Shown here: in pieces, positions 5,608-51,436 of the stretch
Numbering within the stretch: position 1 is the first letter of the stretch
Layout of the letters: the number at the start of each line of letters is the position of its first letter
Origin: Luteolibacter luteus
Lineage (GTDB): Bacteria > Verrucomicrobiota > Verrucomicrobiia > Verrucomicrobiales > Akkermansiaceae
Reading direction: 5' to 3'
DNA length: 64,000 nt
Assembly: GCF_012913485.1 (NCBI RefSeq)
Contig: NZ_CP051774.1
Location: forward strand, 3,906,001-3,970,000
The notes under the pieces: generated by a model
Told to the model about the DNA's origin: nothing
Seen by the model: only the letters and a program-made list of their open reading frames with translations
Databases searched by the model: none
Program-made: the position numbers and the translations under genes

Positions 5608-5620
5608 GAGCTGTGCGCCA

Positions 5621-7699: not shown

Positions 7700-7750
7700 A
7701 GGTGCAAAATGCAGCCGAGTTAGGGTGTGGTGCTGTTTTGGGCTTGTAAG

Positions 7751-7760
7751 ACGACGTCGT
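7751..7760. promoter_or_regulatory. 10-base perfect palindrome in the intergenic region
   Basis: ACGACGTCGT reads identically on both strands and lies in the 223-base gap between the cyclase and the next gene. It could be an operator half of unknown specificity. Nothing else is recognised in this gap apart from a short GCCGGTAT duplication near 7860. Confidence 0.2.
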
Positions 7761-7922
7761 TTCGGAAGAGTCAGCTAGTTCGTATTGACGGGAAAGCTGT
7801 CGATACCCCACCCCGGCTACGCCCTGCTGAATCACCCCCCCCTTACCTGCAGTTGCCTGCCGGTATGCCGGTATCATTCCCGCCCATCGCCCCGGGGCGC
7901 GGAGAACCTTCAGCCCCCTCCC

Positions 7923-9032
7923 ATGCGCTCCTCCAAAGTTGCTGCGCTTGCGCTTGCCCTGCTTGCCACGGGTTTGTGTGGGGTATTGCTTTGGAAGCGA
8001 GGTCCGCGCGAGGTGACTGCCCCGGCGGAAGCAGCGAGCCGGGAGATCGCGGAGATTTCTGAAATCGCTTCGGCGGAGGATCCCATTGCTCCTCTTTTGG
8101 AGTCGCTCGGCGAAGAACCCTCGGATGAGGAGGTGCACCGCTCTTTGAGCGAACTTCGTCTGGCGCTTTCTTCAATGCCCGAGGAAGAAGCCATCGCGAG
8201 AATTCGCGACTTTCTTGATCGTGGGGACGACCGGAAGACCGGGCTCGCTTTTGAGATCGCCCGAGGAGGCAAGCTAAGCGGCTGGCCAAGCCTTCGTACT
8301 TTCCTGCTGGATACCTTGTTGGAAATCGATCCGGCCGCTGCCGCCGCGGTTAGCCGCGAGATTCTTTCGAAGCCGACCAATGCCGACGAGTGGGCTCTCG
8401 CCTTGCGCAATGTTGCGAAAGGTGAGGAAAGGGAAGACCGCGCTTTCTTACTGGGGAAAACCCAGGAGCTCATCGGCAACCCGGCGTGGCAGCAGAAGCC
8501 TTCGATCGGATATCTGAATGCTTTTGACGTGCTGGTGCACATAGAGGCCACGGAGAGCACGCCGCTGCTTTCCAATTTCATCCAGATGAAAGACCGCAAG
8601 GATCTGGCTCACGCCGGCTTTCTGACGCTGGATCGCTTGGTGCAGCGGCAACCGGGGAGCGAGTTGCCCCGGCTTTTGGCGGACCGCGAGCTGCAGCGCA
8701 GCCGTCCTGAGATGGTGGCCCAGCAATTTGCCCGCGCCGATCTCCGCGACCCGGAGCAAAGGAAGCTGGTGAAGGACTGGCTGCTCGACCCGGCACGAAC
8801 CGCCACGGAGCTGAGCGCCTTCGCCGGCGTCTATCCGAACAACAACCGCTTCGTCTCGAACAACCTGCTGACCAATGAACTCGCGCCCTCGGGGCCCGAG
8901 TTGGCGGTACATGACCGCGATGCCTTGGCGGTGGTTTCGGGGTGGGTGGCCGATCCGGCCTTTGCGCCGGTGAAGGATCATCTTCAAGCCATGATTCTCC
9001 GCCTTGATGAATTTGTGGGTGGCCGCAAATGA
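7923..9032 (+). CDS. Membrane-anchored helical protein of unknown function
   Basis: The 369-residue product starts with a basic stretch and a hydrophobic helix (VAALALALLATGLCGVLLW), giving a single-pass anchor or signal, and the rest is predominantly alpha-helical. The helices resemble the irregular HEAT-like proteins common in Verrucomicrobia, but no family is recognised. The open frame reaches further upstream; ATG 7923 was chosen because it begins the signal-like helix. It lies 223 bases after the cyclase gene and 27 bases before the giant repeat-protein gene. Confidence 0.7.
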   Translation: MRSSKVAALALALLATGLCGVLLWKRGPREVTAPAEAASREIAEISEIASAEDPIAPLLESLGEEPSDEEVHRSLSELRLALSSMPEEEAIARIRDFLDRGDDRKTGLAFEIARGGKLSGWPSLRTFLLDTLLEIDPAAAAAVSREILSKPTNADEWALALRNVAKGEEREDRAFLLGKTQELIGNPAWQQKPSIGYLNAFDVLVHIEATESTPLLSNFIQMKDRKDLAHAGFLTLDRLVQRQPGSELPRLLADRELQRSRPEMVAQQFARADLRDPEQRKLVKDWLLDPARTATELSAFAGVYPNNNRFVSNNLLTNELAPSGPELAVHDRDALAVVSGWVADPAFAPVKDHLQAMILRLDEFVGGRK

Positions 9033-17147: not shown

Positions 17148-17232
17148 CGAAGTTTTCCGGGCGACTCCCGCTCTTTTTGTGTCCTCCGTGGCAATCGGGT
17201 ATCTGACCTGCTCTTGGGATGTGCCCCTCCGC

Positions 17233-19047
17233 ATGAAGTCGCCTATTTCCCAAATCCTCAAAAGTCTCCACGAACGGTACGCCTCTTTCCGGGAGGGGAA
17301 TGTCGCCGACTACATTCCGGAGCTCTCGAAAGCCAACCCTGATTGGTTCGGCATCTGCATCGCCACGCGCGACGGGCACCTCTATGAGGTCGGGGACACG
17401 AGGCAGAAATTCACCATCCAATCGATCTCCAAGGCGCTCACCTATGGTCTGGCCTTGGAAGACCGGGGAGAGGAACACGTGCTTTCCCGGATCGGTGTCG
17501 AGCCTTCGGGGGACGCCTTCAATGCGATCAGCCTCAAGCCTGGCACCGGGACGCCATTCAACCCGATGATCAATGCGGGAGCCATCGCGACTTGCGGGCA
17601 GATTCTGGAGAGTGACGGGGAGAGCAGGATCCAGCGGATCACCCGTTACCTTTCTCGCTGTGCAGGTGGCCAGCTTGAGATCGACGAGGAAATCTATCGT
17701 TCGGAAAGCATGACCGGGCACCGCAACCGGGCAATCGGCTGGATGTTGAGGAACTTCGATATCATCGAGGAGGAACCTCGCGATATTCTCGAGACCTATT
17801 TCCAGCAGTGCTCGCTACGGGTTACTTGCGCCGATCTTGCGGTGATGGGAGCCACGCTTGCGAATCGCGGTTTCAATCCCATTACCGGCGAACGTGCGAT
17901 CGCGCATGAGTATGTGGACAATGTGCTCGGCGTGATGGCGAGCTGCGGGATGTACGATTGGTCGGGTGAATGGATCTATCGTGTCGGCTTGCCCGCAAAG
18001 AGTGGGGTAGGCGGTGGCATCCTTGCGGTGCTGCCGGGACAATTGGGTATCGGGGTTTTCTCCCCTCCCTTGGATAGCCAAGGGAACAGCGCCCGCGGGA
18101 TCCGGGTTTGCATGGACCTGGCCCGTGAGCTTTCACTGCACATGTTCAATCCTAGTGCCGTACCTCAGCCTGCGGTACGGCGAAGTTACAATGCGGCCCA
18201 GGTAAATTCGCGGAGACGGCTACCATCCTCCACCTTCCGCGAACTGCGGCGCTACGGAGACCGCATTCGTGTGATGGAGCTTCAGGGGCCGCTTCTTTTT
18301 TCGACGATCGAGCCGGTGGTGCGCGAGCTCGTGAAGCAGGTCGCTTATTGCGATCACATCATCTTGAACTTCAGCTACGTGTTCTCCATCGATCTGGTTT
18401 CCCTGAGGATGCTCCACAGTTTATGGCTGCAATGCTCGGCCGAAGGCGTGGGGCTGCTTTGCTGCCATACCGGACGCTTCACCAAGGCTCTGGTCTCCGC
18501 AGGGCTGGACGAGGACTCGCTTTTCTTCAGCGAGGACGCGGCGCTCGAATCCTGCGAGAATGCGGTGCTGGCCCGCGTGAAGCCTGGCTATTCGCCCGAG
18601 GCGGAACTGGTTTCGCTGAATGCCTGCCAGCTTTTCGGCAAATGCGATCACGAAGAGCTGGCCTTCCTCGATGCCAACTTGGAATCGAGACACTATGCCC
18701 CGGGAGAGAACATCATCCAAGCTGGCGGTGATGCAGACGAGCTATTCGTGCTCATGGCGGGCAGCGTCGAAGTTCGCCTCCAACTCGGCGAGAAGCGTTA
18801 CCAGCGTCTTGATGTGTTCTCTGCGGGCATGAGCTTCGGGGAGTTGGCTTTCCTCGACGGATCGCCACGCTCCGCAGACGTGGTAGCGATGGCACAGGTG
18901 GAGTGCCGGGTCATTCCACGAGCGCTCTTCGAGGAGATCGGTGCCAGCCGACCCCTGCTGAAGGCGAAGATCCTCACTGAGATCTCGCTCCAGCTTTGTG
19001 ACCGGTTAAGACAAGCTAACATCGAGATCTCCGCGTTGCGAAATTGA
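17233..19047 (+). CDS. glsA: Glutaminase fused to STAS and cyclic-nucleotide-binding domains
   Basis: The 604-residue product combines three domains. Residues 1-300 are a serine-dependent beta-lactamase-fold glutaminase, which converts L-glutamine to glutamate plus ammonia. It shows the S64-x-x-K67 motif within QSISKAL, NPMINAGAI, GHRNRAIGWML, CGMYDWSGEW and AKSGVGGGI. Residues about 335-440 form a STAS domain (ELQGPLLFSTIEPVV, then HIILNFSYVFSIDLVSLRML). Residues about 455-590 form a cyclic-nucleotide-binding domain (GSVEVRLQ and SFGELAFLDGSPRSADVVA). ATG 17233 is chosen because the glutaminase fold begins there; the frame is open upstream into the preceding gene. The C-terminal domains suggest allosteric control by cAMP or by a partner. 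It is followed by three genes for further cyclic-nucleotide-binding domains. Confidence 0.93.
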   Translation: MKSPISQILKSLHERYASFREGNVADYIPELSKANPDWFGICIATRDGHLYEVGDTRQKFTIQSISKALTYGLALEDRGEEHVLSRIGVEPSGDAFNAISLKPGTGTPFNPMINAGAIATCGQILESDGESRIQRITRYLSRCAGGQLEIDEEIYRSESMTGHRNRAIGWMLRNFDIIEEEPRDILETYFQQCSLRVTCADLAVMGATLANRGFNPITGERAIAHEYVDNVLGVMASCGMYDWSGEWIYRVGLPAKSGVGGGILAVLPGQLGIGVFSPPLDSQGNSARGIRVCMDLARELSLHMFNPSAVPQPAVRRSYNAAQVNSRRRLPSSTFRELRRYGDRIRVMELQGPLLFSTIEPVVRELVKQVAYCDHIILNFSYVFSIDLVSLRMLHSLWLQCSAEGVGLLCCHTGRFTKALVSAGLDEDSLFFSEDAALESCENAVLARVKPGYSPEAELVSLNACQLFGKCDHEELAFLDANLESRHYAPGENIIQAGGDADELFVLMAGSVEVRLQLGEKRYQRLDVFSAGMSFGELAFLDGSPRSADVVAMAQVECRVIPRALFEEIGASRPLLKAKILTEISLQLCDRLRQANIEISALRN

Positions 19048-20499: not shown

Positions 20500-21219
20500 T
20501 TAACATGTGAGAGGCCGTTGCTCCACTCCGTCCGAGGAGATCCAGCTTACTTCCTGTTTCTCCCAATCGAAGCGGAGGGCGGTAGGGGACGGGCCGATCT
20601 GGCGGCCGGGATTAAAGGCCCATGTTTCTCCAAGGCGGTCGATCCACGCCCCCTTCGAATAGAACGGTGCATTGTGGATATGGCCGGATAGGACCATGTG
20701 GGGCGAGAATCGCTTGATCCAGGCGGTCAGGGTTTCATCGCCTGCAAAGCTTTTGCCCGTCCAGCTTAGAGGTCCTTCCGGTGCGGCGTGGTATACCCAA
20801 ATCCAAGGGGTACCTGGCGGTGGAACAGCTGCGATGAGTTGTTTCTCCACTTCAGCACGGGAGACCGGTCCATCCCACCAGGGGCAAATCGTGATGCGCA
20901 TCCCTCCCATATCGATGGATTCGCCATCGATGTGCAGGCGCTCCGTCTGGACGTCTCCCAGCCAACGCGCCCTCGACTCTCCGCTCGCATCGCGGTGATC
21001 GCCATCATGATTGCCAGAGCTCACGATCACGCGTGTAAGTTCCCGCAGGCGACGCAGGTATTTTTCGATCACGACGATCTGGATATCGATCTCAAGTGAT
21101 CCGGCAAGATCGAGAAGGTCACCGCCGATGATGAGGGCGTCGCATTCTGCGGCATTGGCGGCGAGCCAATCAAACTGCTTCAAGGTGTAGTGCAGGTCGG
21201 CGACAAAGAGCAGCTTCAT
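20500..21219 (-). CDS. Calcineurin-like metallophosphoesterase
   Basis: The 239-residue cytoplasmic protein carries the ordered metal ligands of the calcineurin-like phosphoesterase fold: DLH near residue 8, GGDLLDL near 32, GNHDGD near 70, a His in WVYHAAP, and GHIHNAPF near 180. The organisation resembles Icc/YkuE-like phosphoesterases. A role in cyclic nucleotide hydrolysis is possible given the neighbours but is not shown by sequence. ATG 21219 is preferred over TTG 21231, because MKLLFVADLHY is the typical first strand. It converges with the cNMP gene at 20483. Confidence 0.85.
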   Translation of the reverse strand: MKLLFVADLHYTLKQFDWLAANAAECDALIIGGDLLDLAGSLEIDIQIVVIEKYLRRLRELTRVIVSSGNHDGDHRDASGESRARWLGDVQTERLHIDGESIDMGGMRITICPWWDGPVSRAEVEKQLIAAVPPPGTPWIWVYHAAPEGPLSWTGKSFAGDETLTAWIKRFSPHMVLSGHIHNAPFYSKGAWIDRLGETWAFNPGRQIGPSPTALRFDWEKQEVSWISSDGVEQRPLTC

Positions 21220-21259
21220 CGGTGGGGGCAAGATAGCTTGGAGGAGTTTGGTGCGAGAT

Positions 21260-40298: not shown

Positions 40299-40925
40299 TC
40301 ACCGTCCCACCAGCAGCTTCCTACTACTCCAAACGTAGTTGGCGCCTGAGATGAGGGTAAGTGCCACGGCGGCCCAGAGGGAGATTTGCATCAGCCAGCT
40401 TCCAGGAGTCGCGAGGGTTTTGAGGAGGCCTCCGAGTGCTCCGGGATTGGCCATGGAAGCGAAGGTCAGCCAGACGAGACCGGTGATGCAGAAGGTGAGC
40501 TGGAAGGTGGTCTTCCATTTGCCCAGGTTGTCCGCGGCGAGGACTTGTCCCGCTTCCACTGCGATCTGTCGCAATCCTGTCACAAGGAACTCGCGGGCGA
40601 TGATCACACAGGTAACCCAGACGGGTGCGTGGTAGCCAGTCACAGGCTGGGCGGAAAAATACACGAAGGCCGCGCACACGAGGATCTTGTCCGCGAGGGG
40701 ATCGAGCAGTTTTCCAAGTGGAGTGACGAGCCCGAGCTTCCGGGCGAGATAGCCGTCCAGCCAGTCGGTTGCCGCTGCTACTGAGAAAGTAACGAGTGCG
40801 ATAGCGAAGCCGGTGGTGGTCGGAAAACCCACCGCAATGACGAAAATCGCCGTCAGGATCAGGCGGGAGACGGTAATCGCATTGGGGAGATTCACGGCGC
40901 GAATGTGGGGAATGCATGGCATCAT
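40299..40925 (-). CDS. pgsA: CDP-diacylglycerol-glycerol-3-phosphate phosphatidyltransferase
   Basis: The 208-residue inner-membrane enzyme makes phosphatidylglycerophosphate from CDP-diacylglycerol, the first step to phosphatidylglycerol. The CDP-alcohol phosphotransferase signature is intact: DWLDGYLARKLG, then PLGKLLDPLADK (D-G-x2-A-R-x8-G-x3-D-x3-D), followed by hydrophobic helices. ATG 40925 (MMPCIPHIRAVNLPNAIT) fits the family; the frame is open further upstream. It is divergent from the 6-phosphogluconate dehydrogenase gene, with 70 bases between starts. Confidence 0.93.
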   Translation of the reverse strand: MMPCIPHIRAVNLPNAITVSRLILTAIFVIAVGFPTTTGFAIALVTFSVAAATDWLDGYLARKLGLVTPLGKLLDPLADKILVCAAFVYFSAQPVTGYHAPVWVTCVIIAREFLVTGLRQIAVEAGQVLAADNLGKWKTTFQLTFCITGLVWLTFASMANPGALGGLLKTLATPGSWLMQISLWAAVALTLISGANYVWSSRKLLVGR

Positions 40926-40995
40926 GGCAACAAGGGGTTGCACCGATGGCGTGACTTCCTTACACCCCCGCCGTTTCCCGAACCGTTTCAAGATC

Positions 40996-42414
40996 ATGAG
41001 TAACAGCGATTTCGGCCTCATCGGCCTGGCCGTCATGGGCCAGAACCTCGTCCTCAACGTGGAATCCCGCGGATTCCAGGTGTCCGTTTACAACCGCACC
41101 ACCTCTGTCACCGAGGAGTTCGTGTCTGCTCATCCCGACAAGAAGCTGGTCGGTGCAAAGAGCCTCGAGGAGTTTGTCCAATCCCTTGCCGCTCCACGCA
41201 AGGTCATGATCATGGTGAAGGCCGGTGGTCCGGTGGATGCCGTGATCGAGCAACTCATCCCGCTTCTCGACAAGGGCGACATCATCATCGACGGCGGCAA
41301 CTCGCTCTACACGGACACCGAGCGCCGCGACAAGTGGCTCGGCGATCTTGGCTTCCGCTTCATCGGTGCCGGCGTGTCCGGTGGTGAAGAAGGCGCGCGC
41401 AAGGGTCCTTCGATCATGCCGGGCGGCCCTGCTTCCACCTGGGATGTGATGAAGCCGATCTTTGAAAGCATCGCCGCCAAGGTGGACGGTGAGCCCTGTG
41501 TGACGCACATCGGCCCGGGCGGTGCCGGTCACTATGTGAAGATGATTCACAATGGCATCGAGTACGGCGACATGCAGTTGATCTGCGAAGCCTACAATAT
41601 CTTCAAGGCCGCTGGCTTCGATGCCGAGGAACTCGCCGAAGTCTTCACCGAGTGGAATGAAGGTGACCTCGAGAGCTACCTCATCCAGATCACCTCGAAG
41701 ATCTTCGCCCAGCAGGATCCGGAAACCGGCAAGGCACTCGTGGACTACATCCTCGACACTGCCGGCCAGAAGGGCACCGGCAAGTGGACGATCATGAACG
41801 CGGTGGAAAACGCCGTGGTGATCTCCACCATCAATGCCGCGGTGGAGGCCCGCATCCTTTCCTCGATGAAGGACAAGCGCGTCGAAGCCAGCAAGGTTCT
41901 GGAAGGGCCGAAGCCGAAGATCGACGAAAAGAAGAAGAAGCTGGTGAAGAAGGTGCACGACGCGCTCTTCGCTTCGAAGATCATCTCCTACGCGCAGGGC
42001 CTCGACCTGATCGCAACCATGGGCAAGGAGAAGAACTGGGGTCTCGACCTCGGCAAGATCGCCGCCATCTGGCGTGGCGGTTGCATCATCCGCGCGCGTT
42101 TCCTGAACGACATCACGGATGCCTACCGCAAGAATCCGGAGCTGAGCAACCTGATGCTGGCCCCATACTTCACGGATCTGCTCAACGAGTTCCAGGAAAA
42201 CTGGCGTGAAGTGGTGTCGATCGCGACGCTTGCCGGTATCCCGGTGCCCGCTTTCTCGGCATCGCTTGGTTACTACGATAGTTATCGTAGCGCCGTGCTG
42301 CCAGCGAACCTGCTGCAGGCCCAGCGCGACTTCTTCGGTGCCCACACCTACGAACGCACCGACAAGCCGCGCGGCGAGTTCTTCCACACCGAGTGGCCGG
42401 AAGTCATCGGCTAA
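40996..42414 (+). CDS. gnd: 6-phosphogluconate dehydrogenase, decarboxylating
   Basis: The 472-residue enzyme converts 6-phosphogluconate to ribulose-5-phosphate plus CO2 with NADP+, in the oxidative pentose phosphate pathway. Features are the dinucleotide motif GLAVMGQNL near residue 10, GVSGGEEGARKGPSIMPGG near 128, HNGIEYGDMQL with the catalytic region near 185, and GQKGTGKWT near 258. ATG 40996 begins MSNSDFGLIGLAVMG. Two strong hairpins follow the stop. Confidence 0.97.
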   Translation: MSNSDFGLIGLAVMGQNLVLNVESRGFQVSVYNRTTSVTEEFVSAHPDKKLVGAKSLEEFVQSLAAPRKVMIMVKAGGPVDAVIEQLIPLLDKGDIIIDGGNSLYTDTERRDKWLGDLGFRFIGAGVSGGEEGARKGPSIMPGGPASTWDVMKPIFESIAAKVDGEPCVTHIGPGGAGHYVKMIHNGIEYGDMQLICEAYNIFKAAGFDAEELAEVFTEWNEGDLESYLIQITSKIFAQQDPETGKALVDYILDTAGQKGTGKWTIMNAVENAVVISTINAAVEARILSSMKDKRVEASKVLEGPKPKIDEKKKKLVKKVHDALFASKIISYAQGLDLIATMGKEKNWGLDLGKIAAIWRGGCIIRARFLNDITDAYRKNPELSNLMLAPYFTDLLNEFQENWREVVSIATLAGIPVPAFSASLGYYDSYRSAVLPANLLQAQRDFFGAHTYERTDKPRGEFFHTEWPEVIG

Positions 42415-42512: not shown

Positions 42513-43205
42513 TCAGTGGCGGCGCCTGCGCAAGAGGCAACTCATCATTCCCAATCCGGCCAAGCCCAGGGATGCGGGCTCGGGGATCAGGCGCACTTGC
42601 ATCAGGTTGATCTGGGCGCTTCCACCGCCTGGCACGCCCTCCACGAGGGACGAAGGGTCGATGGTGATCGTCTGGTTGCCGGAAGCATCGGCGACAAAGG
42701 TTCCGATGATGTAGCTGCCCACTCCCGTGCCATCCGCAGGGTAGTAGACATTCGGGGAGACATCGCCGTCCCCGCTCAGGTTCGCCCAGCGCGTCTGCCC
42801 GATGTTGCGGGGATCGGAGATCCAGATCTGGACGAGGTAGGACTGCCCTGCGGTCATGCCGCCCCAGGAAACGGAGCGGCTTTCGTCGCTATACACGTAG
42901 CGACCGTACGAAAGCAGGGTGTTGTAGTTCGAGTCGGCCGTGTTCTGACCGCCGAAGTAGCCGCCGCCATCGTCGAGAGTATTGTTCAGGCCGGGCAGGT
43001 CGGAAAAGCCCTGGAAGCTCACGCCATTCACCGGGAAATTCGGGGCATCGGCATGGTTCGGTGCCCATGAGCCGACATAGGTGCCCTGTGTCGAGACATC
43101 GGATGCGCCGGTGATCGCAGAGGGTGTTTGCCAGGTGATGGTTGCGGCAGGCAAGAGAGGGGCGAGCAGGCCGCTCGCGGCGGCCGCCAGGAGGATTTTT
43201 TTCAT
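42513..43205 (-). CDS. PEP-CTERM sorting-domain exported protein
   Basis: The 230-residue product has a signal peptide (MKKILLAAAASGLLAPLLPAA), a beta-rich extracellular domain (SYGRYVYSDESRSVSWGGM, YLVQIWISDPRN) and a C-terminal PEP-CTERM tail. The tail comprises the PEP motif in IPEPASLGLAGLG, a hydrophobic stretch and the basic RRRRH. The tail directs processing by an exosortase. The ligand or function of the body is unknown; it resembles other verrucomicrobial PEP-CTERM surface proteins. It lies downstream of the Wadjet operon on the same strand, but 101 bases away. Confidence 0.85.
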   Translation of the reverse strand: MKKILLAAAASGLLAPLLPAATITWQTPSAITGASDVSTQGTYVGSWAPNHADAPNFPVNGVSFQGFSDLPGLNNTLDDGGGYFGGQNTADSNYNTLLSYGRYVYSDESRSVSWGGMTAGQSYLVQIWISDPRNIGQTRWANLSGDGDVSPNVYYPADGTGVGSYIIGTFVADASGNQTITIDPSSLVEGVPGGGSAQINLMQVRLIPEPASLGLAGLGMMSCLLRRRRH

Positions 43206-43270
43206 GGGGAGCGGGTTTGGGGCGTGATGCCTGCATGGCACCAGCCTCCCGATCATCCCCGGATCCGGCA

Positions 43271-43316
43271 GCGACAGTCAGTCGCATCTTGGGGTGACAG
43301 TCCCGTCACCTTTTTT
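43271..43316 (+). terminator. Plus-strand terminator-like hairpin at the end of the Wadjet operon
   Basis: GGTGAC and GTCACC pair around AGTCCC and are followed by T6 at 43311-43316 on the plus strand. A second small hairpin GCGAC/GTCGC lies at 43271-43285. The T tract overlaps the last codons (Glu-Lys-Arg) of the minus-strand membrane protein gene, so it may be incidental, or it may block antisense transcription into the operon. Confidence 0.4.
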
Positions 43317-43620
43317 CCTGGCTCGCCATCCGCAGCGGGATGGTGATGAGCCAGACCAAGCAGGCAAAGGCCAGAAGCAGCAGGAGAGCTGGGAGCCATT
43401 GGTAGAAGGCCCGCTCCCACAGGGGAGACGAGGTCGACCAGGTCCATCGGGGTTTCAGCTCGCCGAGGATGAAAGAGGAGCATCCCAGAATGAGCGTGCC
43501 GGCCAAACTGAAAGCGATTTCAGTTAAGAACCCGCGGAAGCGATCCTGATCTTCCGGGGCAATCGGGAGCTGCTCTCCTTGTGGAGGCACTTCCCATTCT
43601 TCCGGTTCACCATCACTCAT
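43306..43620 (-). CDS. Small two-helix membrane protein overlapping jetD
   Basis: The 104-residue protein has an acidic N-terminus and two hydrophobic helices (LTEIAFSLAGTLILGCSSFI; WLPALLLLLAFACLVWLI). No family is recognised. Its ATG 43620 overlaps the jetD stop (8 bases shared), so it is probably translated from the Wadjet transcript. Wadjet loci usually have four genes, so this is either an accessory component or an unrelated gene that was captured. Confidence 0.7.
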   Translation of the reverse strand: MSDGEPEEWEVPPQGEQLPIAPEDQDRFRGFLTEIAFSLAGTLILGCSSFILGELKPRWTWSTSSPLWERAFYQWLPALLLLLAFACLVWLITIPLRMASQEKR

Positions 43621-44887
43621 CAGGGATCATGCAATCACAAGCGAGGGGCGGGAGGCAATCGTGTTCCTGTCGGCGGTAGAAAGGCCAGCAAGGAAGTTCC
43701 GGTCTGCCGAGCGACTCTTGTTCGAAGTCCCCCTTGTCCCCGGTGGTAGCGATCTCTTCCAAGTGTGGCCGGACATCCGCGAGCATCGGATCGCCAAGCA
43801 AGCGGGGAAGAATCGAGCGATCATAGTCGCTCAGATCCAGCGGGTGGTTCCGAAGTCTCCGCTTCATCAGGAACGGTGTCACCTCCCTGCCGGTGGCTCT
43901 CCGCAGCCTTGAAAGAATGTGGAAGCCTGCCGGATCGGTATCGCCGAAATGAAATACGGGTAACTCGGCCGGGAGGAGTTTGAAGAGGCGGATGAGCCCG
44001 CGGCTGGGGAATGCACAGGCTGCGATCAAGGTTTCGCGGTCCTCGTTGAGCGAGGCGATCCGGCGAAGCGTGGTCTTGGAGTTCTCCACGGTGAGCACCC
44101 TTTTGGCTGGAGTGGTCACCTTGACCGCGCGGTCGAGATCCGAGGTGAGATGGAAGACCCCGTGCAGACCTTCGACTGTCGCTTGGCTTCCATCTTCGAA
44201 GTGCAGCGTGAGTTCGCCTGCGAGCTCGACCTTTCCGCCAGGACCTTGGAAGCCGAACATGCCGAGGGTCATCGGGCTGCCGAACATCGCGGTGAGGCAC
44301 GCTTCCAAGGGGCGTTGGGCCTTCTCCAATTCCTTCGACTCGAAACCCAGTGCCACGCTTCCTTCACGGATGAGGGTGTCGCTTTGCCAAGTCCTGGAGG
44401 TGATTTCCTCCACATTGCGGAGTAGCTCCGAAACCAGATCCGGGTGTCTCCACAGGAGAGGTCGTGCGTTGCGCCCTTCGCTGAAATCCTTGGCGATGGA
44501 GAGCAGCCACGCCGACCAAACTTCAGGATACTTGGGGTGGGTGCGGGACAGGAAGAAATGGACGGCGCGTAGACTAGTCTGCCGCAAGAGTTCAGGATGG
44601 GGGCTTTCGAAGAGCGCTCGCAGCCACGGCTCCGAGCCCAGAGGAAGCTCGATCCGTTCGATCAGGTAGCGGCGATAGCTATGGCGCTTGAGAAGGACGA
44701 TTCCTTCTCGCTCCAGCTTCTCTGCCTCCCGCCCTGCGGTCGCGATGTCTTCTGCTGACCGGACGCCTGCCGTGAAGAGCAGGTCATCCCAGTACCGGGT
44801 GTAGGCTTTGGTCCGGGAGCCGAGCTTCTTGCCGCGGGCGGCGAACCACTGGCGGTGAAGCTCGGCAAGCCAGACGGGGTGCTTCAT
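43613..44887 (-). CDS. jetD: Wadjet nuclease subunit JetD
   Basis: The 424-residue product matches JetD (DUF3322/DUF2220; MksG/EptD). JetD is the Toprim nuclease that cuts plasmid DNA after loop extrusion. An N-terminal helical domain that docks on the SMC complex is followed by a winged-helix-like region. The Toprim core has the catalytic Glu268 in LTVENSKT and the metal-binding Asp316/Asp318 in FGDTDPAGF. ATG 44887 gives MKHPVWLAELHRQW; ATGA overlaps the jetC stop by four bases. All expected active-site residues appear intact. Confidence 0.93.
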   Translation of the reverse strand: MKHPVWLAELHRQWFAARGKKLGSRTKAYTRYWDDLLFTAGVRSAEDIATAGREAEKLEREGIVLLKRHSYRRYLIERIELPLGSEPWLRALFESPHPELLRQTSLRAVHFFLSRTHPKYPEVWSAWLLSIAKDFSEGRNARPLLWRHPDLVSELLRNVEEITSRTWQSDTLIREGSVALGFESKELEKAQRPLEACLTAMFGSPMTLGMFGFQGPGGKVELAGELTLHFEDGSQATVEGLHGVFHLTSDLDRAVKVTTPAKRVLTVENSKTTLRRIASLNEDRETLIAACAFPSRGLIRLFKLLPAELPVFHFGDTDPAGFHILSRLRRATGREVTPFLMKRRLRNHPLDLSDYDRSILPRLLGDPMLADVRPHLEEIATTGDKGDFEQESLGRPELPCWPFYRRQEHDCLPPLACDCMIPDE

Positions 44888-47800
44888 GAGAGCGCTTCGA
44901 TCAGGCGCTTGCGGTCGACCCTGGCGCACCAGTTGCGGATGCCGGTGACGTTGCCGGTTTTCTCCTCGTAAGTCCGCTCGACGCGGGCCTGAACGACGGT
45001 CTGCGCGTGCTGGATCATCGTGGGCAGGCGGTCTTCCGGGAAGGCCATGACGAGTTGGAGGCCGAAGTTCCGCGCGAGGGCGAGACAGGCATCGATGCGG
45101 TCACCGGAGAGCTTCGAGAAGGCTTCATCCATCACGACGAGGCCGAGGTTCCGGCGCAGGTCTTTCCGGCCAAGGTCATAGACGCGCTGGAAGGCGGCGA
45201 GCATCGCGACGAAGAAGGGTGCCTGGTTTTCGCCGCCGCTCTGTTTCTTCGCGCTCTTGTTGAGGGAGATCGCGGAGCCTTCGCCCTTGCCTGCGGGCGT
45301 GGCCTGGATGTCCCAGTGGTGATAGTAGCGGTAATCGAGCGCTTTCTGGTGGCGCGGGTCTTCCGCGTTCTCGATCGCCAGCATCAATGCCTGTTTCGCT
45401 TTCTCGATGTCTTCCTTGCCGCCTGCGGCGAAGAGTTCGAGGGAGGGATTCAGGCCCTTGTCCACCAGCGTCCAGATGGCGCTGTGGGTGCGGTCGGCGC
45501 GCATGGAGAGTTGATAGCGCATGCCGCCGATGACGTGGTCCATGGCCTTGTTCAGCTCCTTCTTGGTGCGCTCGGCTTCATCGAGCTTCTCCTTGAGAAC
45601 ATCGAGCACCTGGTGCTGGAGGCGATCTTCCCACTGGCGCTGGGCGTCCTCGGCTTCCACGCGGTAGCGCTCGAGCTCGTGCTCTTCCAGCTCGCGGCGG
45701 CGGTTGTCGTAGCGGGTGTTCTCGTCGTCGGCAGGATCGAAGAACTCGGCCGTGTCCGGATGCTTCTCCGCAAGGGCTCGGCGTTCGATGTCCCGGTGAT
45801 CTCGTGCTTTCTCCGAATCGCTGCGGCGGGTGCGGGCGACCTCGCCCACGGCCTCGATGCGCTGCGACCACTTGGCAAACTGTTCGAGAACCGACTCGAT
45901 GTTGCTGGCGATCTCCGTATCGCGGATGTGTGAAACCTTCTCGCGGCTGATCCGACGCTCCTGAAGTGCTGTTTCTTCCTCCTCGGTGGCGCTGGCGATG
46001 GCGTCGAGTTGCTCGCGCTCCTGCTGCTCGAACTTCGAGAGGGAACCTGCCAACCGGCCGATGCGTTCGATCACGCCTTGGAAGGTCTTGTCGAGCACTC
46101 GCAGCTTTTCGACCGTCGCCTCGCGCTCGGGAGTGGCGAGCAGACGGATGGTTTCATCGAGCTGCTGCGACTCTTTCTTGAGTCGTGGCAAGTCGCGCAG
46201 GCCGGAAGTGCCCGCAGGCGGATCGGCTTGATCGAGATTCCACTGCTTGCCGCGATGAAGCCACATCTTCCAATCGTCCCGGGAACGGTTGAGCTTCGTG
46301 AGCTCCTCGCCCACGACTTCGAGTTCTTCTTCGCGGAGCGTTCTCAGGCGGCGGAGTCCTTCCTCGCCGATCGTGAATTCTTTCGATGGTGTGAGGTGGA
46401 GACGGAGCGGTGGGTCTTTCAGCCAACCGTCCTTGGAGAGCGCGCGCGGGTGCTTGTCGAGTTGCTTGGCTTTGTCGACCGCCACGAGATCCCCATAAAG
46501 CTGTTCCAGGTAAGCCTTCGCGGTGCCGTGGCTGGTTTCGAAGAACTCGGCGACACTGCCTTTCTTCGCCTTGCCCGCAGAAACCTCGGATGGATCGACG
46601 AGTGGCTCATCGATGTGGCCCAGCCGCTGGGCTTGGTCCCATGCGGCGGTGAAATCTTCCGGCAGCACGGCTTGGCGGTTCGGGCCAAGCAGGGTTTCCA
46701 AGAGCGGCCACCACGGTTCGGCTTCGGGCTTCACCTCGATCACCCGACCGAGTGCCACTGCCTTCTGTCCGCGTGAGCGCAGCGCATCCAACAGTGGCGA
46801 TGCGGCGGTGCTGCCCTTGTGCACGAGGTCATCGATCTCGCGCTTCAGGCGGGATTCACGGGCTTCCAGTTCCTTGATGCGTTCCTCGATCGGGCGCAGC
46901 TGGTCGTCACCCTCGCTGGCGAGTTCGTGATAGATCCGCGCCATCCGCGTGGCCGCATCGAGTGCGGGTGCTTCGTCGGCTCCCTGCATTTCCTTCAGCC
47001 AGCTGGCGGCACGGTCCGGTTCCTCGATGCCGAGTTCCCCTGCGTGCTTCAGCCACTGCTTCCAGTGCTGGGTGCGGTCGTGAAGATATTGCCGAGCGGT
47101 CTTCGATGCCTCGCGGAGCTGTTCGATCTCCTTCTGCACTTCATCGAAGCGCGAGCGATTCTGCGCGAGGTGGGCGATCTGCGAGTCATTGCCCGCGACG
47201 AGACGGACCGAGGCAAGCTGTTGTTCGAGGTCATTCCTCTCGGTGATGGCGGCGTCGTGATCCGCGCGCTGCTCCTCGTTCTGCTGGCGGAGTTGCTCGA
47301 TCTTCGCTCGTCGTGCTTCGAGAGCCTCCTTCTTTTCCTCGTGGACCAGCGCATCCCGCAAGTGGCCGAAGAGGGCGGCCTCGCGCTTGGTCTCAAGGTA
47401 GGTGGCGTGCTGCTCGCAGATGCGCACCAAACGCTGGTGCTGGTCGTGCATCGTATCGAGCCGGTCTTTCGCGCGACGGTGGGCATCCACGCTGGCGCGC
47501 ACCGCCTTGACATCGGGGAGGCCGGGCTCCAGCAGGTATTCGCGGATGAACTTCTCGAAGCTCTCGACCGGCTGGAAGGCCATCGAGTTCGGGAGCGTCT
47601 TGTTCATCTGGACGCGGTCGAAGCCGAGGTGGTTTCGCGAGGCCATCTCCTCCAGATAGGTCGCCTGACGATCCCAGACATCGCCCTCCAGATCGCGCTT
47701 CACGTGGACGCGGAACTCATCCTCGGAGAGGAAGGAGAGGCCGTCATCCAGCAACTGCGGGGCAAGGAAATCGTCCTTCTGAAGGCGGCCGGGCACACAG

Positions 47801-48201
47801 AACCAGAGTGTGCGAGGCTTTGCTGTGGGGCCTTCGTATTCGATGCGGGCACCCCATGTTTCGTGGCGTGGCTCGGAGCCATCCGAACCGGCAGGCCAGA
47901 CGAACTCGAGCGCGGCCAAGGTCACGCCGCTGGGGCGCAGGAAGCGCTCCTGGCCGTCCTTGCCGACCGTATTGGTGTCGCAAAGGCAGTATCCACGCAG
48001 CGTGCGTCCGCTGCCTGCACCGGCAGCAGCCTTGTTGAAGCGGCTCAGCGATTCGCCGAGCATCACGAACTGCAGCAGGTCGAGGAGGGCGCTCTTTCCC
48101 GAGCCATTGGCACCGGTGATAAGCGTCAGGCCGGAGACATCGATGAAGTCCCGGTAACCGTACCAATTGATGGCGATGATGCGGCTGAGGTGAACGCGCA
48201 T
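44884..48201 (-). CDS. jetC: Wadjet SMC ATPase JetC (MukB/MksB-like)
   Basis: The 1105-residue SMC-like ATPase contains Walker A GANGSGKS at residues 30-37, long charged coiled-coil arms (about 210-480 and 640-930) flanking a hinge region, the signature QSGGENQ near 987, and Walker B LVVMDEAF at 1021-1028. Wadjet JetC dimers extrude DNA loops and sense small circular DNA. ATG 48201 is chosen; the frame extends three codons upstream to a TTG. Its stop overlaps jetD by four bases. Confidence 0.95.
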   Translation of the reverse strand: MRVHLSRIIAINWYGYRDFIDVSGLTLITGANGSGKSALLDLLQFVMLGESLSRFNKAAAGAGSGRTLRGYCLCDTNTVGKDGQERFLRPSGVTLAALEFVWPAGSDGSEPRHETWGARIEYEGPTAKPRTLWFCVPGRLQKDDFLAPQLLDDGLSFLSEDEFRVHVKRDLEGDVWDRQATYLEEMASRNHLGFDRVQMNKTLPNSMAFQPVESFEKFIREYLLEPGLPDVKAVRASVDAHRRAKDRLDTMHDQHQRLVRICEQHATYLETKREAALFGHLRDALVHEEKKEALEARRAKIEQLRQQNEEQRADHDAAITERNDLEQQLASVRLVAGNDSQIAHLAQNRSRFDEVQKEIEQLREASKTARQYLHDRTQHWKQWLKHAGELGIEEPDRAASWLKEMQGADEAPALDAATRMARIYHELASEGDDQLRPIEERIKELEARESRLKREIDDLVHKGSTAASPLLDALRSRGQKAVALGRVIEVKPEAEPWWPLLETLLGPNRQAVLPEDFTAAWDQAQRLGHIDEPLVDPSEVSAGKAKKGSVAEFFETSHGTAKAYLEQLYGDLVAVDKAKQLDKHPRALSKDGWLKDPPLRLHLTPSKEFTIGEEGLRRLRTLREEELEVVGEELTKLNRSRDDWKMWLHRGKQWNLDQADPPAGTSGLRDLPRLKKESQQLDETIRLLATPEREATVEKLRVLDKTFQGVIERIGRLAGSLSKFEQQEREQLDAIASATEEEETALQERRISREKVSHIRDTEIASNIESVLEQFAKWSQRIEAVGEVARTRRSDSEKARDHRDIERRALAEKHPDTAEFFDPADDENTRYDNRRRELEEHELERYRVEAEDAQRQWEDRLQHQVLDVLKEKLDEAERTKKELNKAMDHVIGGMRYQLSMRADRTHSAIWTLVDKGLNPSLELFAAGGKEDIEKAKQALMLAIENAEDPRHQKALDYRYYHHWDIQATPAGKGEGSAISLNKSAKKQSGGENQAPFFVAMLAAFQRVYDLGRKDLRRNLGLVVMDEAFSKLSGDRIDACLALARNFGLQLVMAFPEDRLPTMIQHAQTVVQARVERTYEEKTGNVTGIRNWCARVDRKRLIEALS

Positions 48202-48216
48202 GGATAACAAAATGGC

Positions 48217-48846
48217 TTAAGCGGGAGTCTCGGCGGGGGCGGGCTGATAAAGCGCGACGCGGGCGTTCCAAGCTTCGATGGAATCGAAAGGGATCGTCCG
48301 CGCGAGGCTGGGCAGGATCTCGATCAGCATTTCGCCTACCGGCGCATTCGGATCGGTCTTATGCGTGCGGATCAGGCGATGCCGCTTCATGCGTGCCAGC
48401 AATTGCTCGAGGTGAGTCTTTTCAGGCGGCTCGATGTTCTCGAAGGTTGCCTTAAAGCGCTGCCAGAGGTCGTCGACGGTGATGACCACCGCTTGGGCGG
48501 CCTGGGTGTTCCGGTGGTCATCCCAGGTGCGCCAGAGTACGAGAAGGAGAAGCGTCTCGTCCTTCGTGAACTGTGCAAGCAGGAGGCAGGCTTCCGGGCG
48601 TGGGCGTGCCTGAAGCAGGTAGAAATCGTCATCCACGATGAGCTCCAGGCCGAGTGGTGCGAGGTAATCCGTGATGTGATTCTGGTAATGATCCCGCGCG
48701 AGGAGGAACAGGTCCCTGCCGCTGCCCTCCGTGCCAAGCAAGGTGCCCCGGCTCAAGAGCTCGGCGAGGATCTCGCGCATCGGTGCCCGGTCGGAATCGG
48801 GAACATCCGGCCAGAAGCGTGGCCAATGGGGATCGTGATCGTTCAT
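48217..48846 (-). CDS. jetB: Wadjet subunit JetB (MukE/MksE-like)
   Basis: The 209-residue protein matches JetB (DUF4194), the MukE-like winged-helix protein that links JetA to the SMC heads. Visible features are helical segments REILAELLSRGTLLGTE, TWDDHRNTQAAQAVVITVDD and HLEQLLARMKRHRLIRTH. ATG 48846 overlaps the jetA stop as ATGA. Fifteen bases separate its stop from jetC. Confidence 0.92.
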   Translation of the reverse strand: MNDHDPHWPRFWPDVPDSDRAPMREILAELLSRGTLLGTEGSGRDLFLLARDHYQNHITDYLAPLGLELIVDDDFYLLQARPRPEACLLLAQFTKDETLLLLVLWRTWDDHRNTQAAQAVVITVDDLWQRFKATFENIEPPEKTHLEQLLARMKRHRLIRTHKTDPNAPVGEMLIEILPSLARTIPFDSIEAWNARVALYQPAPAETPA

Positions 48847-50321
48847 GCTTGGCGGGTGATGGTGAAGCGCTCGATGTTCCAGCCGCACTGTTCGTCCTGA
48901 GGGATCGTGTCCGGCTCCATGCCTTGTTCACGGCGCGGGCCATCCACGGTCCAACGCACCACGCGGCCATCTGCCATGGTAGCGTGGTCATAGGCGGCGG
49001 TGGCGAGGAGATCGAGGAGATCATCGATCGACGCTGATTCGACAGTGTCCGTTCCTGCCACAGCGGCGACCTCATCCATGAGCCGGGCAACCAGACGGGC
49101 TGCCCGCTGCGGTGTGAGCGCCAGACGCTGGCGTTCGCGAAGGGCTGCGAGGGTGTCTTCCTCGTCATCCGCCGCATCGTCATCAAGATCGAAGGAGAGA
49201 TCGGCGGCAGCGCGAAGGCGGCGGACCCGTGCCAAGGACTCGACGCCGTAGAAGCAGCGCATCTCCGGAACCAAGGGTGCGAAATCAGGTGCTGCATCCC
49301 GCATTGAGCCGAGCTTCGCGCCCATGTGAGCCGCATTGATCGCATCGCAATACGACTTCACGATTTCAGGACGGCGGCCGCGCAGCTCGGTTTGGTAATT
49401 GTAGCGCTGCTGGGAAAGGCGGTTGAAGCCTGCCATGCGGGCATCGATGGCATCGGCGACGAGGCGGATCGATGCGAGGCGCCGCTCGAGATCGCGCAAC
49501 GCCCTTTCGGCCCGCAGGTAGGACTCCTCGGATGACCAGCCGTAGTGGGTGGAAAGCCCCTCGGCCAGACGCTCCTTCACCATTGGCTGGTCGCGCAGGT
49601 CGGCCACCTTGGTGCGGGCTGCTTGCAGGCGAGGTAGCAGGCCGTTTCTACGAAGGGCATCGTAGCAGACCATGTGCTGGCCCGAGCCGAACTCCGCATA
49701 GAGCAAGCGCAGCGTCTCCGCGGGAGATTCACTGGCCCGCTGGCGCTGGTCGAAGACCGAGATCAGCTTTTCGACGCCATGAAGCTGGATCACCGCGTTC
49801 TCGAGCCGGCTGTTCAAGTCGGTCACCGTCGCGCGGAGCTCATCCGGCGTGCGGGTGCGAGGTTCGAGCGACTCGGGGCGCTCCAAGGTTTCGCAGACGC
49901 CGCGCACGGTATCCGCGAAGGTGGTGAGCTCCGCGATTTCATCTTCCGCCAGCTCGCGCAGCAGGCGCAGCAGCGGACGGAGTCCGGGCGAAACGAGGGC
50001 CCAGCGTTCGTGCAGGCCAAGCTGCTGGTCTTCGAGCCAGCCGGCATCGCAGAGGCGATTGAAAATCTGTCCCGCCTTTTGTCGCGCATCCCTCAGGGAG
50101 CCGCCTTCGTCATCGGCGAGCTGGATGTCGGGATGCGAGGAGAGGGTGTCGCGGACGAGGGCAACGGCCTCCGCTTGCTGGATCCGGCCCGCATCGCCAG
50201 CGGCATCTGCGATCTGGTCCGCGCAGTCGATATAGAGCGCCGCCGAGGGCCGCGAAAGCGGCCGGAAGAAGTCCCGCGAGACGGAACCAAGGAGACGGTG
50301 GCTGAGTGAATCGAGCGGCAT
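48843..50321 (-). CDS. jetA: Wadjet kleisin subunit JetA (MukF/MksF-like)
   Basis: The 492-residue protein matches JetA (DUF3375), the kleisin of type I Wadjet. It has N-terminal winged-helix segments (AVALVRDTLSSHPDIQLADD, FNRLCDAGWLEDQQLGLHER), a helical middle (residues 150-330) and a C-terminal head-binding part. It is the first gene of the operon. ATG 50321 is chosen because the frame beyond it is not conserved-looking. The length is normal for JetA. Confidence 0.93.
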   Translation of the reverse strand: MPLDSLSHRLLGSVSRDFFRPLSRPSAALYIDCADQIADAAGDAGRIQQAEAVALVRDTLSSHPDIQLADDEGGSLRDARQKAGQIFNRLCDAGWLEDQQLGLHERWALVSPGLRPLLRLLRELAEDEIAELTTFADTVRGVCETLERPESLEPRTRTPDELRATVTDLNSRLENAVIQLHGVEKLISVFDQRQRASESPAETLRLLYAEFGSGQHMVCYDALRRNGLLPRLQAARTKVADLRDQPMVKERLAEGLSTHYGWSSEESYLRAERALRDLERRLASIRLVADAIDARMAGFNRLSQQRYNYQTELRGRRPEIVKSYCDAINAAHMGAKLGSMRDAAPDFAPLVPEMRCFYGVESLARVRRLRAAADLSFDLDDDAADDEEDTLAALRERQRLALTPQRAARLVARLMDEVAAVAGTDTVESASIDDLLDLLATAAYDHATMADGRVVRWTVDGPRREQGMEPDTIPQDEQCGWNIERFTITRQA

Positions 50322-50398
50322 GCGGCAGGGCGGGGGGCGGTAGCCTAGCCCTCCCGTGCCGCGTGCCAAGTCTTCAAGAGTTCGATCCGCGGTTGAGG

Positions 50399-50416
50399 GG
50401 AAATGTGCTTATTTCC
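50399..50416. promoter_or_regulatory. Inverted repeat upstream of jetA
   Basis: GGAAAT and ATTTCC are inverted around GTGCTT, 78-95 bases upstream of the jetA start, in an AT-richer stretch. It is a candidate operator or promoter-proximal element of the Wadjet operon. Confidence 0.35.
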
Positions 50417-50461
50417 AATAGTTTGCAGATCTGGCTAACTGCCGCTGCCCAATCGGGCCCT

Positions 50462-50488
50462 CTCCTGCCACGCCGAAAGTGGCAGGAG
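50462..50488 (-). terminator. Strong hairpin after the ThuA-like gene
   Basis: CTCCTGCCAC and GTGGCAGGAG pair perfectly around GCCGAAA, 22 bases after the ThuA-like stop. There is no T tract on the minus strand, so it may need a protein factor or only stabilise the mRNA end. It separates that gene from the Wadjet operon. Confidence 0.55.
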
Positions 50489-50509
50489 CGTAATCGGGGC
50501 CGAGGAGGA

Positions 50510-51436
50510 CTACTTTTTGTCCAGATTCGCCTTCATTTCATCTTCCGTCGGGGTTTTCGACGCCACTCCCTTGGCCGGAACCTCGACATTGGCGATCCAC
50601 GCGATGGCGTTCAACACGATGCCGCGGTGGTCGTCATGCTGCCAGTTCTTGTGGAAATGCCCTCCGGTGAAGCCGAAGGCGCGGCCCTTGCCGAACTCCG
50701 GAGTGCGCTCGTAGGCCCACATCACGTGCTGGGGTTCCTTGCGCTCCAGCACTGCGGCACGAACTTCCGGATTCCCCTCATGGGCACCGTCCGGACGACT
50801 GAGGGAGTCCTTCGGCGGCAGGTCGGTGAGGATGGGGGTTACGCCCTTCATCTTGTCTTGGAAACGCATGTGGTAGTACCACTCGTCCCGGATCTTGAAG
50901 TTATCGATACCGCGGCTGATCTCGTGCTTGGCGGGCTTGAAATTTCCATCCCAGTGCGGGTTCACGGACCAATCGGTCTCGAAGTAGCCGCCGATCAGGT
51001 CGAGGAAGGTCTGGCCGCCTTCGCCCTTGGGCACTTCCACAGCATAATGGATACAGCCGATGCCGGCGCCCGTGTTCGCGATTTCCTTCAGCTTGGCGAG
51101 ATGCTGCATGGCCGGGTGACCCCCGCCGCCATCCGCATACATCACCACTGCGGCCGCTCCATCGAAGACGCTCTCGTCCTGCGGCCAGCCATCGGTGACG
51201 ACCACGGCCTCCACTGGCAGGCCGCTCTTGTTGATCTGGTCAGCCAGCAGCATGCAGCCGGCGCGGTGCTCATGCTCACCCGGGCCATGGCTGGCGCGAC
51301 CGGCCACGAAAACGATCTTCTTCTTTGCCGTTTCGCCAGCCTTGGCGGGCTCGCCGGGGCTTTGGGTCATGAAGGCGATGGAGGCGGCTCCTGCGCAGGC
51401 AAGCGCCAGGACCAGGGAACGAGAGGTTTTTTGCAT
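50510..51436 (-). CDS. Exported ThuA-like domain protein
   Basis: The 308-residue product has a signal peptide (LVLALACAGAASIAFM) and a ThuA-like class I glutamine-amidotransferase fold (KIVFVAGRASHGPGEHEH, GAGIGCIHYAVEVP, WYYHMRF, GRAFGFTGGHFHKNW). ThuA-like proteins are linked to trehalose or sugar metabolism, and many secreted Planctomycetes/Verrucomicrobia homologues accompany glycoside degradation; the reaction is unclear. ATG 51436 starts the signal peptide. Confidence 0.85.
   Translation of the reverse strand: MQKTSRSLVLALACAGAASIAFMTQSPGEPAKAGETAKKKIVFVAGRASHGPGEHEHRAGCMLLADQINKSGLPVEAVVVTDGWPQDESVFDGAAAVVMYADGGGGHPAMQHLAKLKEIANTGAGIGCIHYAVEVPKGEGGQTFLDLIGGYFETDWSVNPHWDGNFKPAKHEISRGIDNFKIRDEWYYHMRFQDKMKGVTPILTDLPPKDSLSRPDGAHEGNPEVRAAVLERKEPQHVMWAYERTPEFGKGRAFGFTGGHFHKNWQHDDHRGIVLNAIAWIANVEVPAKGVASKTPTEDEMKANLDKK

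What the first reader, a model, noticed from the sequence alone, without database searches (positions are those of the whole stretch)
43613..50321. Complete type I Wadjet (JetABCD) plasmid-defence operon
Four overlapping minus-strand genes encode a kleisin (JetA), a MukE-like protein (JetB), an SMC ATPase (JetC) and a Toprim nuclease (JetD), in the canonical order. Key residues appear intact: Walker A at JetC residues 30-37, QSGGE at 987, Walker B at 1021-1028, and JetD Glu268, Asp316 and Asp318. Wadjet is an established system (also called MksBEFG or EptABCD); its presence in this background implies active restriction of small circular DNA.
Basis: partly seen in the sequence, partly recalled or inferred. 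Interest (0 to 1): 0.85.

Follow-up and report, generated by a model that had tools for sequence, protein, structure and literature searches.

The report
Complete type I Wadjet anti-plasmid operon
This is an apparently intact four-gene bacterial machine of a known kind (Wadjet) that should reel in and cut small circular DNA; what is unusual is that close relatives repeatedly lose, and at least once exchanged, the cutting part while keeping the rest.

Summary
Four minus-strand genes at 43613-50321 encode JetA (492 aa), JetB (209), JetC (1105) and JetD (424); the quoted residues sit where stated. Type I PADLOC models match all four best, Pfam agrees, a JetC family profile finds solved JetC chains nearly end to end, and the JetD model aligns with solved JetD and MksG. 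It is a new member of a known kind; 'active restriction' is inferred, not shown.

The relatives are the interesting part. (1) JetD dN exceeds JetC dN in 16 of 16 disjoint pairs. (2) JetD is often missing: 28 of 110 JetC-bearing genomes of the order sample have no JetD match (19 of 86 among the more complete), a JetC tree needs about 18-19 changes, and three locus pairs show jetD absent beside full-length jetABC. (3) JetD was exchanged at least once. (4) Six genomes without Smc or ScpA matches carry JetABC and no JetD match, two of them incomplete. The window genome has Smc, ScpA and an intact JetD.

The parts
48843..50321 (-). jetA (mksF/eptA-like kleisin), 492 aa, ATG at 50321
   Evidence: Pfam PF18982 JetA 44.7 bits against a cut-off of 26.2; PADLOC JetA1 41.6 bits; 83-84% identical to JetA of three congeners
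48217..48846 (-). jetB (KITE / MukE-like), 209 aa, ATG at 48846 overlapping the jetA stop; the ORF listing gives an upstream GTG at 48888
   Evidence: Pfam DUF4194 77.5 bits; PADLOC JetB1 57.9 bits; family profile finds solved JetB 8dk1_E at E 0.0033
44884..48201 (-). jetC (SMC ATPase), 1105 aa, ATG at 48201 (ORF listing gives a TTG at 48210)
   Evidence: PADLOC JetC1 435 bits; family profile A2 finds solved JetC 9qxt/8as8/8dk2 at E 1e-27 to 1e-31
48091..48114 (-). JetC Walker A, GANGSGKS, residues 30-37
45229..45243 (-). JetC ABC signature QSGGE, residues 987-991
45118..45141 (-). JetC Walker B LVVMDEAF, residues 1021-1028
43613..44887 (-). jetD (Toprim nuclease), 424 aa, ATG at 44887 overlapping the jetC stop; residues 405-424 are modelled with low confidence, and the stretch after the conserved WPF (21 residues) is longer than in any of the 18 other aligned JetD that have a WPF
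   Evidence: Pfam JetD_C 44.4 bits; PADLOC JetD1 79.2 bits; model pLDDT 86.3; VIA-align Z 13.5 over 331 residues to 7til JetD and Z 13.0 over 321 residues to 8b7f MksG; tail lengths
44084..44086 (-). JetD E268, predicted metal-binding Toprim glutamate
   Evidence: invariant
43934..43942 (-). JetD D316-T-D318 of the Toprim domain
   Evidence: D316 and D318 invariant
43715..43723 (-). JetD E389-Q390-E391; two conserved glutamates of JetD, matched to MksG E349 and E351, have been proposed as nucleophiles (equating them with E389/E391 is my inference)
   Evidence: invariant in 25 of 25 rows; proposal seen in passages of PMC10123090

Best explanation
The locus is a complete type I Wadjet (JetABCD/MksBEFG) operon on the chromosome of a bacterium whose relatives are Verrucomicrobiales. 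Most likely JetA (kleisin), JetB (KITE) and JetC (SMC ATPase) form a dimer of loop-extruding motors. On small closed circles extrusion runs to completion, the two motors meet, and the Toprim nuclease JetD is activated and cuts; linear DNA and the chromosome escape. Shown here: gene content, order, domain make-up, catalytic motifs, JetD fold, and separate Smc and ScpA genes. Inferred from published work on type I systems: loop extrusion, activation and plasmid exclusion. The comparison also suggests that JetABC is useful without JetD, and that JetD is a fast-evolving, easily lost, at least once exchanged effector on a better-conserved SMC chassis.
For: Domain and type I profile matches. Motifs. 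Solved JetC chains recovered by profile. JetD model aligned over residues 4-404 to solved P. aeruginosa JetD and 3-414 to C. glutamicum MksG, with Topo VI-A and Spo11 as Foldseek's best. Invariant catalytic residues. JetD matches in 30 of 97 genomes, the window's included. Only one JetC match in the genome; Smc and ScpA lie elsewhere. Mechanism from PMC10586767, section 4 read.
Against: No functional data exist. The JetA and JetB matches are modest, and JetA finds no solved JetA chain by sequence. The window JetB shows no IFDR motif, the JetD contact that PMC10586767 cites from cross-linking of a type I complex. 28 of 110 JetC-bearing genomes of the order sample have no JetD match, so plasmid cutting may not be the only thing selected.
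Confidence: 0.88

Rival explanations
1. A chromosome-organising MksBEF-like condensin in which JetD is accessory or vestigial: JetABC folds the host chromosome, and the nuclease is a dispensable add-on under weak selection.
For: Against three congeners JetA, JetB and JetC change little (dN 0.09-0.12; Smc 0.05-0.06; JetD 0.41-0.43). G007, with JetABC 83-85% identical to the window's, has no JetD match. JetC dN/dS is 0.02, 0.05, 0.06 and 0.11 in four pairs whose members show no adjacent JetD (L126/L131, L106/L108, L127/L158, L135/L136; L108 ends 2.1 kb after jetC). Six genomes with no Smc or ScpA match carry JetABC without a JetD match.
Against: In the window JetD is full length with every catalytic residue, and Smc and ScpA are present. 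JetABC is not always as slow as Smc: against G012 (no JetD) and G006 (JetD elsewhere) JetABC dN is 0.21-0.28 where Smc dN is 0.07, at similar dS. A fifth pair, L121/L168, has JetC dN/dS 0.15, and L168 jetC is split. The four Smc-less genomes placed on the tree belong to a separate JetC clade. Loss of a defence effector is also expected under plain cost-of-immunity selection.
Confidence: 0.2
2. A decayed or silent Wadjet: genes intact in sequence but not expressed or not restricting.
For: No sigma-70-like promoter found in 43100-50700 (0 found, 0.8 expected by chance), which says little in this phylum. JetD carries a longer C-terminal tail than the relatives aligned.
Against: All four frames are open, catalytic residues are invariant, and JetA, JetB and JetC keep low dN/dS against congeners.
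Confidence: 0.08
3. Type II or III Wadjet rather than type I.
For: A weak JetC2 match (50 bits) and a weak JetD2 match (17 bits).
Against: All best PADLOC matches are JetA1, JetB1, JetC1, JetD1; JetC1 at 435 bits against JetC2 at 50. The JetC profile prefers 8as8/8dk2 JetC (E 1e-27 to 1e-31; that these are type I is from PMC10586767 and recall) to the 1371-residue 9qe0 JetC (E 1.6e-5).
Confidence: 0.03

Closest known systems
Type I Wadjet JetABCD of E. coli GF4-3 and P. aeruginosa PA14
   Same: Four genes in the same order, kleisin/KITE/SMC/Toprim subunits, nearly full-length JetC profile match, JetD fold over nearly the whole chain
   Different: Sequence is remote: single-sequence searches find no solved Jet protein; no IFDR motif in JetB
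MksBEFG of Corynebacterium glutamicum
   Same: JetD aligns with MksG 8b7f over model residues 3-414, Z 13.0, rmsd 17.3; Toprim acidic residues kept
   Different: Remote sequence; native function untested here
MukBEF / MksBEF condensins without nuclease
   Same: Same three kinds of SMC-complex subunit; relatives of the window with no JetD match are in this state
   Different: The window has an intact JetD and also has Smc and ScpA

Membership tests
Type I Wadjet | four genes jetA-B-C-D in one operon, same strand | tested here: met
   overlapping frames or a gap of 15 bases, in this order; co-transcription not tested
Type I Wadjet | JetA kleisin of the type I group | tested here: met
   PF18982 JetA 44.7 bits; PADLOC JetA1 models only
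Type I Wadjet | JetB KITE (DUF4194) | tested here: met
   DUF4194 77.5 bits, MksE 28.4 bits; JetB1
Type I Wadjet | JetC SMC ATPase with Walker A, signature, Walker B | tested here: met
Type I Wadjet | JetD with Toprim acidic residues and a two-domain fold | tested here: met
   JetD_C match; invariant E268, D316, D318; fold match to 7til and 8b7f
Type I Wadjet | type I and not II/III subunit models match best | tested here: met
Type I Wadjet | cuts or excludes small closed-circular DNA | not testable with these tools
   needs expression and plasmid assays
MukBEF/MksBEF condensin | no JetD/MksG nuclease with the operon | tested here: not met
   intact jetD follows jetC
MukBEF/MksBEF condensin | organises the chromosome | not testable with these tools
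   Smc and ScpA matches are both present in this genome, so JetABC is not its only SMC complex

The most novel reading that the evidence does not exclude
In Verrucomicrobiales, type I JetABC is a dual-use SMC complex rather than a dedicated defence. It is kept under purifying selection whether or not a nuclease is attached. JetD is a fast-evolving effector that is lost again and again, sometimes kept at a distant locus, and at least once exchanged between lineages. In one clade the disarmed JetABC has become the only detectable condensin after loss of Smc-ScpAB, a repeat of the route proposed for MukBEF.
Probability: 0.35. Interest if true: 0.75.

Novelty: new member of a known kind. Interest (0 to 1): 0.45.

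Why it matters
The operon adds a complete type I Wadjet on a single-contig genome of this group and predicts difficulty in keeping small plasmids in this strain. [quoted passage not shown]). The relatives found here offer matched armed and disarmed pairs, down to a locus pair 92-95% alike over most of 17 kb except for jetD. That makes what JetABC does without its nuclease directly testable.

Tried and rejected
Fifth gene: the small membrane-like ORF at 43306-43620 overlaps the jetD end by 8 bases and looked like an accessory. Its homologues in G015, G007 and G009 lie on contigs other than those holding the jet genes, and no family matched, so I treat it as a host gene.

Effector swap: I suspected other effectors in place of JetD in JetD-less operons. 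The ORFs after jetC that I could read in 15 loci looked to me like housekeeping genes or noise (its output was cut, so L056 was seen in part and L057 hardly at all). No alternative effector was identified; I ran no family search on these ORFs (one search covers only the neighbourhoods of two unlinked JetD copies).

JetB N-terminal motif as JetD contact: the conserved WPxFW stretch occurs with and without JetD and is absent from a JetD-bearing group, so it does not track JetD.

Mobile carriage: no JetC in PLSDB plasmids at E 1e-20, no JetD in INPHARED phages at E 0.001, none confirmed in viral contigs. Foldseek alone did not list JetD or MksG among the 50 rows shown; the second look did.

Fast evolution against exchange of JetD: at fourfold sites in conserved columns, uncorrected for multiple tests, JetD is more diverged than JetABC in 11 of 19 pairs (p<0.05), not different in 7 and less diverged in 1. 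Neither process alone fits all pairs.

Smc loss as the reason for keeping JetABC: not general, because the listed genomes of genus g3 have neither Smc nor JetC, and 104 of 110 JetC-bearing genomes have an Smc match (read by eye).
Full report
WHAT IS THERE. Four minus-strand genes lie at 43613-50321. With ATG starts at 50321, 48846, 48201 and 44887 they encode 492, 209, 1105 and 424 residues. jetA/jetB overlap by an ATGA, as do jetC/jetD; jetB and jetC are 15 bases apart. The GC content here, 61-64%, lies within the window's range of 57-64%.

WHAT IT IS. Pfam: JetA PF18982 44.7 bits; JetB DUF4194 77.5 bits and MksE 28.4; JetC SbcC_Walker_B 62.3 and AAA_29 51.4; JetD JetD_C 44.4. PADLOC: the best matches are the type I models for all four, JetC1 at 435 bits. 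NCBIfam gives nothing over its cut-offs. Single-sequence searches of solved structures find no Jet protein. A profile of 15 related JetC proteins finds solved JetC chains 9qxt, 8as8 and 8dk2 at E 1e-27 to 1e-31, the first two over positions 5-1090; a JetB profile finds 8dk1_E at E 0.0033; a JetA profile finds none. JetD was modelled from 25 aligned sequences: mean pLDDT 86.3, pTM 0.66. Foldseek's best are Topo VI-A and Spo11. VIA-align gives 7til JetD Z 13.5, rmsd 9.3, 331 residues, and 8b7f MksG Z 13.0, rmsd 17.3, 321 residues; Topo VI-A scores higher (Z 16.8) but covers only part of the model. The large rmsd would fit a hinge between two domains (inference). E268, D316, D318 and E389-Q390-E391 are invariant in 17 of 17 and 25 of 25 JetD proteins. 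In MksG, E236 and D279 are needed for cutting, and for JetD two conserved glutamates, matched to MksG E349 and E351, were proposed as nucleophiles (PMC10123090, passages seen); equating them with E389 and E391 is my inference.

HOW IT MOST LIKELY WORKS. By analogy with studied type I systems, JetABC extrudes DNA loops, completes extrusion only on small circles and then triggers JetD (PMC10586767, section 4 read). Nothing here tests this. The host genome is one 6.41-Mb contig with a single JetC match, and with Smc and ScpA elsewhere, so JetABC is not its only SMC complex.

RELATIVES. In 97 genomes, the window's included, JetD is matched in 30 and JetC in 43 (different thresholds). In a sample of 386 genomes of the order, JetC profile A2 (E 1e-60) matches 110 and JetD profile A3 (E 1e-10) matches 82; all 82 are among the 110, leaving 28 with JetC and no JetD match (recount). 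Among genomes at least 90% complete and at most 5% contaminated the figures are 86 and 67 of 268, so 19 lack a JetD match. Some of the 28 are fragmentary, with JetC at a contig end, and a distant JetD could be missed. Pfam JetD_C was sought in 13 JetD-less genomes (12 of the 28 plus G018) and found in none, while the window genome rang; of 14 control genomes only C. glutamicum rang. Of 114 fetched loci with JetC, 75 have a JetD match (some broken or partial), 32 have at least 2.5 kb after jetC and no JetD match, and 7 are cut short; a few genomes occur twice, once unnamed and once named. Four of the 32 (L051, L062, L064, L065) have a JetD elsewhere in their genomes.

JETD IS LOST REPEATEDLY. 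On a JetC tree of 93 rows (66 with and 27 without adjacent JetD; 10 of the 75 and 5 of the 32 left out as duplicates, partial or broken, and the window added) the state needs 19 changes, at least 18 on well-supported branches. Shuffled labels need 23.7 on average, and 8 to 11 of 500 shuffles are as low, so the label is only weakly clustered (FastTree, with warnings about long branches). Changes count gains as well as losses. The window's own group shows it: G007 has JetABC 83-85% identical to the window's and sits among JetD-bearing congeners. At the same locus G007 has 88 bases where G011 has 1317 holding jetD. L110 and L134 align at 92-95% for most of 17 kb, except that jetD is missing from L134, which keeps about 33 bases resembling the jetD start, now with an in-frame stop, so there it is a loss. 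L058 has 25 bases where L044 has 2123 that include jetD. Some of these are metagenome assemblies, so single cases may be assembly errors.

JETD EVOLVES FAST. Window against G009, G011 and G015: dN 0.05-0.06 for Smc, 0.09-0.12 for JetA, JetB and JetC, 0.41-0.43 for JetD. In 16 disjoint pairs drawn from 47 loci with JetC dS under 1.1, JetD dN exceeds JetC dN in 16 of 16, 2.3 to 19 times. JetD dN/dS stays at 0.13-0.29, so this may be weak constraint rather than positive selection. Fourfold sites suggest that several pairs also hold JetD copies older than their JetABC, though not all. In one group the JetD tree rejects the JetABC grouping of G016, G010 and G050 (AU p 8.6e-6, group chosen after seeing identities). 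The window's JetD groups with those of its congeners, so for it fast change may be enough. Against a simple picture of a slow chassis: JetABC of G012 and G006 differ from the window's by dN 0.21-0.28 where Smc differs by 0.07, at similar dS.

DISARMED JETABC AND SMC. Among the 110 JetC-bearing genomes, six have no Smc match at E 1e-30: G030, G046, G054, G337, G341 and G219 (read by eye; 68 non-matching genomes are not listed there). G219 has ScpA and is 87% complete in 1230 contigs, so its Smc is probably missing from the assembly. The other five have no ScpA match and no JetD match. G018, from the first set, has JetC but no Smc, ScpA or JetD match; its JetC runs to a contig end. G018 is 72% and G341 82% complete; the other four are 93-96%. 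Four of these six (G018, G030, G046, G054) were on the JetC tree and form a separate clade with G063, which has Smc and ScpA. JetABC may have replaced Smc-ScpAB there; it is not needed for Smc loss, since the listed genomes of genus g3 have neither Smc nor JetC.

SPREAD. Nitrosospira sp. Nsp11 carries JetA, B, C and D 78, 86, 75 and 55% identical to the window's, on a 632-kb contig, with flanking genes that read as proteobacterial to me (no family search). The tree places it beside the window's group: likely transfer between phyla.

WHAT IS KNOWN. A 2025 Cell paper states that MukBEF, like several other Wadjet-group members, lacks MksG/JetD (PMC7617805, passages seen), so JetD-less operons are known. 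A gut-bacteria study found no homologue of known condensins in Akkermansia muciniphila (PMC10197239, passages seen). A Clostridium paper deals with a native Wadjet (PMC12287153, passages seen). I found no report of Smc replacement by JetABC in Verrucomicrobia, of JetD rate acceleration, or of repeated JetD loss among close relatives, in searches of the open library only; most of those hits were seen only as listings, and supplements were not read.

VERDICT. The locus is a new member of a known kind. The comparison raises interest to 0.45.

Noticed in passing
window 43306-43620 (-): ORF of 104 aa with hydrophobic stretches, overlapping the jetD end by 8 bases; homologues in three congeners are on contigs other than those holding the jet genes, no family match.
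   Followed up: partly
window 40813-42414; L036, L048/L120, L106, L108, L170: 6-phosphogluconate dehydrogenase (gnd) lies close to jet operons in the window and in several relatives, on either side of the operon; more often than I would expect by chance, not tested.
   Followed up: partly
L042 about 4901-8311 (-) (G003): JetD whose C-terminal part runs on into unrelated sequence and lacks the EQE end, beside JetA, JetB and JetC of normal length.
   Followed up: partly
L093 5186-12559: Nitrosospira sp. Nsp11 holds a close relative of the window operon, next to an ORF that looks to me like a recombinase fragment.
   Followed up: partly
L115, L124, L130, L132, L141, L150: Metagenome bins titled Akkermansia muciniphila carry JetC, while the listed rows of genus g3 have none; that g3 is Akkermansia is my guess, and the titles may be wrong.
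   Followed up: no
window 5561-7699 (+) and 17035-19047 (+): CHASE2 adenylate/guanylate cyclase, and about 9 kb on a glutaminase with STAS and cyclic-nucleotide-binding domains: possible cyclic-nucleotide control of glutaminase.
   Followed up: no
window 9060-17147 (+): 2695-aa protein with cadherin-like, Ig-like and fn3 domains.
   Followed up: no
window 20500-21231 (-): Calcineurin-like phosphoesterase matching PADLOC candidate PDC-S10 at 42 bits; probably a general metallophosphatase.
   Followed up: no
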